From Chloroflexota bacterium (GTDB lineage: Bacteria; Chloroflexota; Dehalococcoidia; Lucifugimonadales; JACPQL01): a DNA stretch of 64,000 nt. Positions 15,839-16,934 of the stretch are shown one piece after another (position 1 is the first letter of the stretch; each line of letters starts with the position of its first letter). Position numbers and translations under genes: made by a program. The notes beneath the pieces were generated by a model. The model made no database searches. It was not told the DNA's origin and saw only the letters and a list, made by a program, of their open reading frames with translations. Location of the stretch: contig JACPQL010000051.1 of assembly GCA_016190445.1 (NCBI GenBank), positions 102,505 to 166,504 of the forward strand, in the 5' to 3' direction.

Positions 15839-15969
15839 GGGACCACCTCCATACTGGGTGCGCGGGCGCCATTGTAGTACGGGAGGCCCACGGACACCAG
15901 GGGCAGGGCCTTGCACAGAAGGGCTGCATCTGGAAGAATGCCTCGTAGACCGTCCCAGGAGGGCAGCAC

Positions 15970-16614
15970 ATGAGCAGTCCAGAGGAACCCATTCGAGTCA
16001 TCAACTGGTACGACTACATCTGACCGTGGTGCTACCTCGGCCTGGAGCGGCTGAAAGAGCTGGGTCAGGAGTACCCCCTGGAGATAGAGCTGAAGGCGTA
16101 CCTCTTGCGGCCCGACGTGCCCCCAGAGGGCAGACCGAGGCAGCCACGCCCCGGCGAGGAGCCCGGAGTGCTGAGCGAACCCCTTCGCACCTACGCCAAT
16201 GAGATGGGCCTGACCAACATGAAGCGGTCACCCCTGGTATCTTATTCGCTGAAGGCGCTGGAGGCTACCGAGTACGCCAAGGGCACGGGCAAGGTGGAGG
16301 CATTCCACCAGGGCGTGTACCGGGCGTACTGGGAAAAGCAGCAGGACATTGGCCGCAACGAGGTCCTGGCAGAGGTTGCCCAGGAGGCCGGGCTGGAATG
16401 GGACCCCCTGCGCCAGGCCCTGGAGGCCCAGACCTACCTGCGCCCCGTGGTGGAGCAGTTCCAGCAGGGCATGTCCCTGGGCTTCACAGGCATACCCGCT
16501 TTTCTCGTTGAGGGCATACCCATGGTAGGCCTCCAAACCCTGGAGACGCTGCGCATGGTCGCCAAGCGGGTGCTCGCCCGCCGAGAGGGCAAGGGGGACC
16601 CAGAGGCGCACTGA
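15970..16614 (+). CDS. DsbA/FrnE-family thiol oxidoreductase, probable selenoprotein (UGA at codon 18)
   Basis: ATG 15970 has AGGAGGG upstream at ideal spacing. The frame runs to 16614 with a single in-frame TGA at 16021-16023, exactly where the first Cys of the active-site CPWC motif is expected: INWYDYI-TGA-PWCYLGLERL. The rest is a normal 214-residue DsbA/FrnE-type domain: helical insert about 60-155, cis-Pro loop FTGIPAFLV, final helix LRMVAKRVLA. The simplest reading is Sec insertion giving a U-P-W-C redox motif. A hairpin compatible with a bacterial SECIS follows the UGA. Alternatives are a TGC/TGT-to-TGA nonsense mutation or a sequencing error. Sec machinery is not in this window. A gene caller would probably start it at 16105 and lose the active site. 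Confidence 0.75.
16031..16051 (+). promoter_or_regulatory. Candidate bacterial SECIS hairpin
   Basis: Starting 8 bases after the UGA, GCT pairs with GGC, then after a small internal loop CTC pairs with GAG. This leaves the hexaloop GGCCTG at 16039-16044, whose first two bases are G and which begins 16 bases after the UGA. That matches the loose bacterial SECIS rule (loop 16-37 bases downstream, G early in the loop). The stem is short and was folded by eye only. Confidence 0.4.
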
Positions 16615-16669
16615 TACTACGTAATGGTTAGTCCGCAAAATAAGCGTACTAATGCGCGGGACTTCTCCA

Positions 16670-16763: not shown

Positions 16764-16912
16764 CTAGGAGGTTGCTGAAAAAGGGGTGTCCAGAGGTGCG
16801 AAGCCCCTTTGGCGGGGGTCTGGGGGTGTCCCCCAGATACAATTCTTACCCCCTTCCTGGCGAGGAAGGGGGGCAGGGGGATGGTCGAAAGGGTTTTTCA
16901 TCACCCTGCTAG
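16764..16912. mobile_element. CTAG-flanked miniature inverted-repeat element, copy 2
   Basis: CTAG at 16764-16767 and 16909-16912 bracket 141 bases nearly identical, by eye, to the element at 6724-6873 in the same orientation, with ends GAGGTTGCTGAAAAAGG and (complement) CAGGGTGATGAAAAACC. It lies between the convergent ends of the DsbA-like gene and the glycyl radical enzyme gene. Confidence 0.8.
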
Positions 16913-16934
16913 CGTGACAGGAAGCTCACCCCGG

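What the first reader, a model, noticed from the sequence alone, without database searches (positions are those of the whole stretch)
15970..16614. Probable selenoprotein: DsbA/FrnE-like protein with UGA at the first active-site cysteine
A strong ribosome site (AGGAGGG) and ATG 15970 open a frame in which the only TGA (16021-16023) falls exactly on the first Cys of CPWC, giving DYI-U-PWCYLGLERL; the remaining protein is full length and well conserved, including the cis-Pro loop. UxxC replacing CxxC is a recognised pattern for thioredoxin-fold selenoproteins. A hairpin with loop GGCCTG starts 16 bases after the UGA, as a bacterial SECIS should. Automated callers would truncate it to 16105 and miss the redox centre. 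No sel genes are visible here, so this stays an inference.
Basis: partly seen in the sequence, partly recalled or inferred. Interest (0 to 1): 0.85.

Follow-up and report, generated by a model that had tools for sequence, protein, structure and literature searches.

The report
Selenium-containing DsbA/FrnE-like redox protein
This gene of an uncultured Chloroflexota bacterium uses an in-frame stop codon to place selenocysteine in the active site of a DsbA/FrnE-like redox enzyme; the family is already known, but the Sec form turns out to be conserved across most of its order and much of its phylum.

Summary
The finding is real and its reading is right. ATG 15970 opens a 215-codon DsbA/FrnE-like frame whose only internal stop, TGA 16021-16023, lies on the first Cys of CPWC. 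Of 86 orthologues read in the same order, 85 have TGA at this codon and one has TGC; in a phylum-wide sample 27 of the 29 best matches also have TGA. The own genome (an 81% complete draft) has tRNA-Sec, selB, and a selD that itself carries an in-frame TGA at its Sec site. selA was not found, but 170 of 197 relatives have it above cut-off. The hairpin after the UGA meets the published bacterial SECIS rules in 107 of 115 TGA genes, against 3 of 39 Cys homologues and 11% of other positions in the same genes. It is preserved beyond what codon choice explains. One correction: the apical loop is UGGAGC (16043-16048); GGCC lies in the stem. Membership: the known 'DsbA-like, UxxC' selenoprotein family (reported 2005), nearest solved structure Deinococcus FrnE. 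So it is a new member of a known kind. Less documented is how dominant the Sec form is in Chloroflexota, with about ten Sec/Cys changes on a quick tree. 75Se or mass-spectrometric proof is still missing.

The parts
15957..15963 (+). ribosome-binding site AGGAGGG, 6 bases before the ATG
   Evidence: sequence; relatives have comparable sites
15970..16617 (+). selenoprotein gene, DsbA/FrnE-like (PF01323), 215 codons plus stop TGA 16615-16617
16021..16023 (+). in-frame UGA read as selenocysteine (residue 18, first position of UPWC)
   Evidence: TGA at this codon in 85 of 86 same-order orthologues and 27 of 29 phylum-wide homologues
16030..16032 (+). resolving cysteine, residue 21 of UPWC; the only cysteine in the protein
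   Evidence: invariant in alignment A1
16031..16060 (+). predicted bacterial SECIS hairpin: lower stem 16031-16033/16058-16060, upper stem 16037-16042/16049-16054, apical loop UGGAGC 16043-16048
   Evidence: synonymous-recoding test; codon conservation
16495..16497 (+). Pro176 of the Gly-Ile-Pro loop, invariant; the expected cis-proline of the thioredoxin fold
   Evidence: its role as cis-Pro is inferred from the fold

Best explanation
The gene encodes a cytosolic DsbA/FrnE-like thiol-disulfide oxidoreductase whose nucleophilic active-site residue is selenocysteine. When the ribosome reaches UGA 16021-16023, the hairpin just downstream recruits SelB carrying Sec-tRNA-Sec, and the codon is read as Sec18 instead of stop. 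The finished enzyme has one Sec-Pro-Trp-Cys centre: Sec18 attacks a substrate disulfide and Cys21 resolves the mixed selenenyl sulfide. The conserved TGA, homology, machinery genes and hairpin are shown computationally; Sec insertion itself, the reductase or isomerase direction, the partner and the substrate are inferred.
For: TGA exactly on the first CPWC cysteine with full-length homology on both sides. 85/86 orthologues in the order and 27/29 phylum-wide homologues keep TGA there; Cys homologues use TGC/TGT. Own genome: tRNA-Sec (71.5 bits; ARAGORN SeC, TCA), selB (over cut-off), and selD 380 bits with an in-frame TGA in CAG-U-AAKF. selA over cut-off in 170/197 relatives. Two Cys-form genomes, G041 and G420, lack selB above cut-off, while 10 of 12 TGA-form genomes tested with them have it. 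Published bacterial SECIS constraints (PMC13188914) met by 107/115 TGA genes, 3/39 Cys genes, 277/2432 background positions. The native hairpin is more stable than synonymous recodings in 93-96% of 67 non-redundant genes in the windows centred on it, and nowhere else in the gene. Residues L25 and R27, inside the hairpin, have the most constrained codons of 101 tested columns. AlphaFold pLDDT 95.7; best fold and sequence match is FrnE.
Against: selA was not found in the own draft genome. The window's own hairpin is not exceptional against shuffles. A third Cys-form genome, G462, does have selB, so gene form and machinery do not match perfectly. Eight TGA genes miss one SECIS criterion. No protein-level evidence exists.
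Confidence: 0.95

Rival explanations
1. The TGA is a nonsense mutation or sequencing error in a Cys-type DsbA gene (pseudogene).
For: A single base separates TGA from TGC/TGT, and the window comes from a draft assembly. Another TGA-interrupted gene, the glycyl-radical enzyme at 19370-16935, lies next door and may be a true nonsense case.
Against: The same codon is TGA in 84 other orthologues across dozens of families, with no other stop in most frames; the hairpin and its codons are under selection.
Confidence: 0.01
2. UGA is read as another amino acid (for example Cys or Trp) by a suppressor tRNA or a changed genetic code, not as Sec.
For: tRNA-Cys and tRNA-Trp were not among the tRNA loci that could be inspected in the draft, so a UCA-anticodon variant cannot be strictly excluded.
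Against: 19 of 47 long non-overlapping ORFs in the window end with TGA, as does this gene. The only TCA-anticodon tRNA seen is tRNA-Sec. The conserved UGA sits at a redox Cys and is followed by a SECIS.
Confidence: 0.02
3. The functional product is the shorter protein from TTG 16105 (or another internal start) without the redox centre, and the upstream part is a short leader peptide.
For: An ORF of 169 codons starts there; gene callers would report it.
Against: The region 5' of 16105 is the most conserved part of the family (DYI-U-PWCYIGL) and holds the first strand and helix of the fold.
Confidence: 0.01

Closest known systems
DsbA-like selenoprotein family, UxxC (COG2761 / PF01323; 'DsbA-like protein form 1')
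   Same: DSBA domain, Sec at the first position of the CxxC motif, bacterial SECIS directly downstream; described from the Sargasso Sea metagenome in 2005 (PMC1088965), listed in the reviews PMC9312934 and PMC13188914, and with 4 sequences in the 2006 genome survey (PMC1794560)
   Different: Those reports list few sequences (9 and 4); the passages read do not describe it as the prevailing form in Chloroflexota. The published reference sequence NIP15863.1 could not be aligned here.
FrnE (Deinococcus radiodurans DR_0659, PDB 5cnw, 5co3, 5coh, 5xwh)
   Same: Best sequence match (profile E 2.6e-36) and best fold match (TM 0.79, E 5e-13); predicted cytoplasmic; CP(W/F)C motif
   Different: FrnE has Cys, not Sec, and a C-terminal CxxxxC used for regeneration (PMC8945050); the window protein ends before it and has no other cysteine than C21.
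DsbA-like protein SCO1869 of Streptomyces coelicolor (PDB 3gl5)
   Same: Next-best sequence and fold match after the FrnE entries
   Different: Cys form, from a different phylum, about 24% identity

Membership tests
Bacterial selenoprotein | In-frame UGA aligned with a redox Cys of homologues | tested here: met
Bacterial selenoprotein | UGA conserved in other species | tested here: met
   85/86 orthologues in the order, 27/29 phylum-wide
Bacterial selenoprotein | selB, selD and tRNA-Sec in the genome | tested here: met
Bacterial selenoprotein | selA in the genome | tested here: inconclusive
   not found in the 81% complete draft; 170/197 relatives have it
Bacterial selenoprotein | SECIS hairpin: loop 3-9 nt with G in its first two positions, stem 4-16 bp, spacing 16-37 nt, MFE <= -7.5 (model as given in PMC13188914) | tested here: met
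   window: loop UGGAGC, 6 bp, spacing 19 nt, -9.1 to -12.7 kcal/mol; 107/115 TGA genes
Bacterial selenoprotein | Sec present in the protein | not testable with these tools
   needs 75Se labelling or mass spectrometry
DsbA-like UxxC selenoprotein (COG2761/PF01323) | DSBA domain with UxxC motif | tested here: met
   PF01323 E 7.7e-30, UPWC
DsbA-like UxxC selenoprotein (COG2761/PF01323) | Sequence similarity to the published members | not tested
FrnE subfamily | Sequence and fold similarity to FrnE with CP(W/F)C | tested here: met
FrnE subfamily | C-terminal CxxxxC (present in many, not all FrnE) | tested here: not met
   no cysteine other than C21 in the window protein; absence also known in some FrnE
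Rcas_1661 family thioredoxin-like (seleno)lipoprotein NF041057 | score over cut-off 190 | tested here: not met
   35.4 bits, C-terminal half only

The most novel reading that the evidence does not exclude
The Sec form is the ancestral or long-standing form of this FrnE-like enzyme in Chloroflexota, kept under selection through the phylum, and the Cys forms there are secondary conversions, partly tied to loss of the Sec machinery. This would make the family one of the most consistently Sec-dependent thioredoxin-fold families, against the general view that such families mostly gain Sec sporadically.
Probability: 0.45. Interest if true: 0.5.

Novelty: new member of a known kind. Interest (0 to 1): 0.35.

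Why it matters
Standard gene callers stop at the UGA or start after it, so this enzyme is likely lost or mis-annotated as a 169-residue protein without a redox centre in dozens of Chloroflexota genomes. The family gives a good natural series of Sec/Cys exchanges (about ten changes on the quick tree) in one enzyme, which allows the old question of what Sec buys over Cys to be tested on real pairs such as the G041 Cys enzyme against its G004/G063 Sec relatives.

Tried and rejected
The protein scan of genome contigs with the window protein found nothing because the back-translated patterns demand Cys codons. The alignment scan for the same reason returned only Cys homologues, which served as the Cys set. 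Rfam found nothing in the window. NCBIfam has no model over cut-off for it. Conserved gene neighbourhood: none beyond single families of the order, so no operon clue to function. A literature search for SAR202 with selenoprotein gave nothing.

Full report
WHAT IS THERE. The frame 15970-16614 is a 215-codon open frame with one internal TGA at 16021-16023 and a terminal TGA. A ribosome site AGGAGGG stands six bases before the ATG. Read through, it is a DSBA-domain protein (PF01323, 7.7e-30) with the motif DYI-U-PWCYLG.

IS THE TGA MORE THAN CHANCE. A search of 197 genomes of the same order with the read-through protein gave matches in 97, and nearly all of the strong ones have one TGA inside. 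I fetched 90 in-order loci (89 from relatives and the window itself) and read the codon: 83 genes with xPWC and two with PFC, taken as the orthologues, have TGA and one (G041) has TGC; of four second copies three have TGA and one is a Ser paralogue. Of the 29 best matches drawn from the whole phylum, 27 have TGA and two Cys. Nearest relatives are only about 50% identical, so this is not a recent shared mutation.

MACHINERY. The own genome is a 2.02 Mb, 52-contig, 81% complete draft. It has selB above cut-off, tRNA-Sec with anticodon TCA, and selD at 380 bits whose own Sec site is an in-frame TGA (CAG-U-AAKF). selA was not found. 170 of 197 relatives have selA above cut-off. About nine TGA-form genomes, the window's among them, lack a strong full-length selA hit; all are drafts of many contigs, so loss in assembly is the likeliest cause (inference). 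In this genome many contigs end in an abundant 150-base repeat. In a small check, Cys-form genomes G041 and the 98% complete G420 lack selB above cut-off, the Cys-form G462 has it, and 10 of 12 TGA-form genomes have it.

SECIS. In the window the hairpin is UCGGCC-UGGAGC-GGCUGA with the loop beginning 19 bases after the UGA. This meets the published model: loop 3-9 nt, G in its first two positions, stem 4-16 bp, spacing 16-37, MFE <= -7.5 (PMC13188914). The same test was met by 107 of 115 TGA genes, 3 of 39 Cys homologues and 277 of 2432 other positions of the same genes. Recoding with synonymous codons shows excess stability only in 36-base windows starting 3-15 bases after the UGA's first base (mean Z down to -1.55); windows in the rest of the gene stay between -0.34 and 0.42. 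The most codon-constrained columns of 101 tested are L25 and R27, both inside the hairpin. Pair 20-30 (bases counted from the U of UGA as 0) occurs as C-G 44, G-C 10 and A-U 3 times among 83 genes; sequences with C-C there use a shifted register. From my own knowledge, the loop position matches that of the E. coli fdhF SECIS. The window's hairpin by itself would not have been evidence (z -0.24).

FOLD AND FAMILY. AlphaFold gives pLDDT 95.7 (modelled with Cys). The best PDB sequence and fold matches are Deinococcus FrnE and then SCO1869. FrnE is a cytoplasmic disulfide oxidoreductase with CP(W/F)C; it has insulin-reduction and isomerase activity in vitro, and a mutant is sensitive to cadmium and diamide (PMC8945050). 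The window protein has no cysteine except C21 and no C-terminal CxxxxC, so it must be regenerated otherwise (inference). No conserved neighbours were found beyond single families.

MECHANISM. Shown here: a conserved UGA at the nucleophile position, a maintained hairpin of the bacterial SECIS type, and the Sec tRNA, elongation factor and selenophosphate synthetase in the same genome. Inferred from established knowledge of the pathway: SelB binds the hairpin and delivers Sec-tRNA-Sec to the UGA; Sec18, more reactive than Cys, forms a mixed selenenyl sulfide with a substrate disulfide, resolved by Cys21 over the cis-proline loop; thioredoxin reductase/thioredoxin or a small thiol recycles the enzyme. 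Without selenium, translation would stop after 17 residues.

KNOWN OR NEW. A DsbA-like UxxC selenoprotein family assigned to COG2761 was described from the Sargasso Sea in 2005 (PMC1088965), is in the 2006 survey (PMC1794560) and in current reviews as PF01323 UxxC. That COG2761 is the FrnE group is from my own knowledge. The gene is therefore a new member of a known kind. The passages read do not describe its prevalence in Chloroflexota; my literature searches were limited to open-access papers. A quick tree of 95 rows with the Sec column blanked needs ten changes between Sec and Cys; it is unrooted and several branches are weak, so direction is open.

TAXONOMY. The locus of G041 is found letter for letter in SHYT01000012.1, Dehalococcoidia bacterium Baikal-deep-G126, so the window's order belongs to Dehalococcoidia, Chloroflexota.

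Noticed in passing
19370-16935 (- strand), TGA at 18719-18717: A glycyl-radical enzyme gene (PFL-like plus Gly_radical domains) is split by a single in-frame TGA (GKLHF-TGA-QAVVISLEG). The aligned residue in solved relatives is Tyr or Leu, not Cys, only distant homologues (about 33%) without a stop exist in the order, and the hairpin after it is weak (-3.2), so a nonsense mutation or sequencing error is likelier than Sec.
   Followed up: partly
16765-16916: A 150-base interspersed repeat with near-palindromic ends (CTAG..GTTGCTGAAAAA / TTTTTCATCACCCTGCTAG), about 40 copies listed at 78-94% identity in the own genome and several at contig ends; MITE-like.
   Followed up: partly
L008:1139-2059 (own genome C46): selD of the same genome has an in-frame TGA at its catalytic Sec site (CAG-U-AAKF) followed by a strong hairpin (-16.4 kcal/mol, z -2.0); it is a second selenoprotein gene.
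   Followed up: yes
own genome C27:19254-19327 and C27:19799-19872 (L212): Two low-scoring tRNA-like genes in a Pro/Ala tRNA cluster are read by ARAGORN with a four-base anticodon GGGU; degenerate tRNA-Pro copies or frameshift tRNAs.
   Followed up: no
G462 (L176): An Anaerolineae-type genome keeps selB but has the Cys form of this enzyme, a possible Sec-to-Cys change in progress.
   Followed up: no
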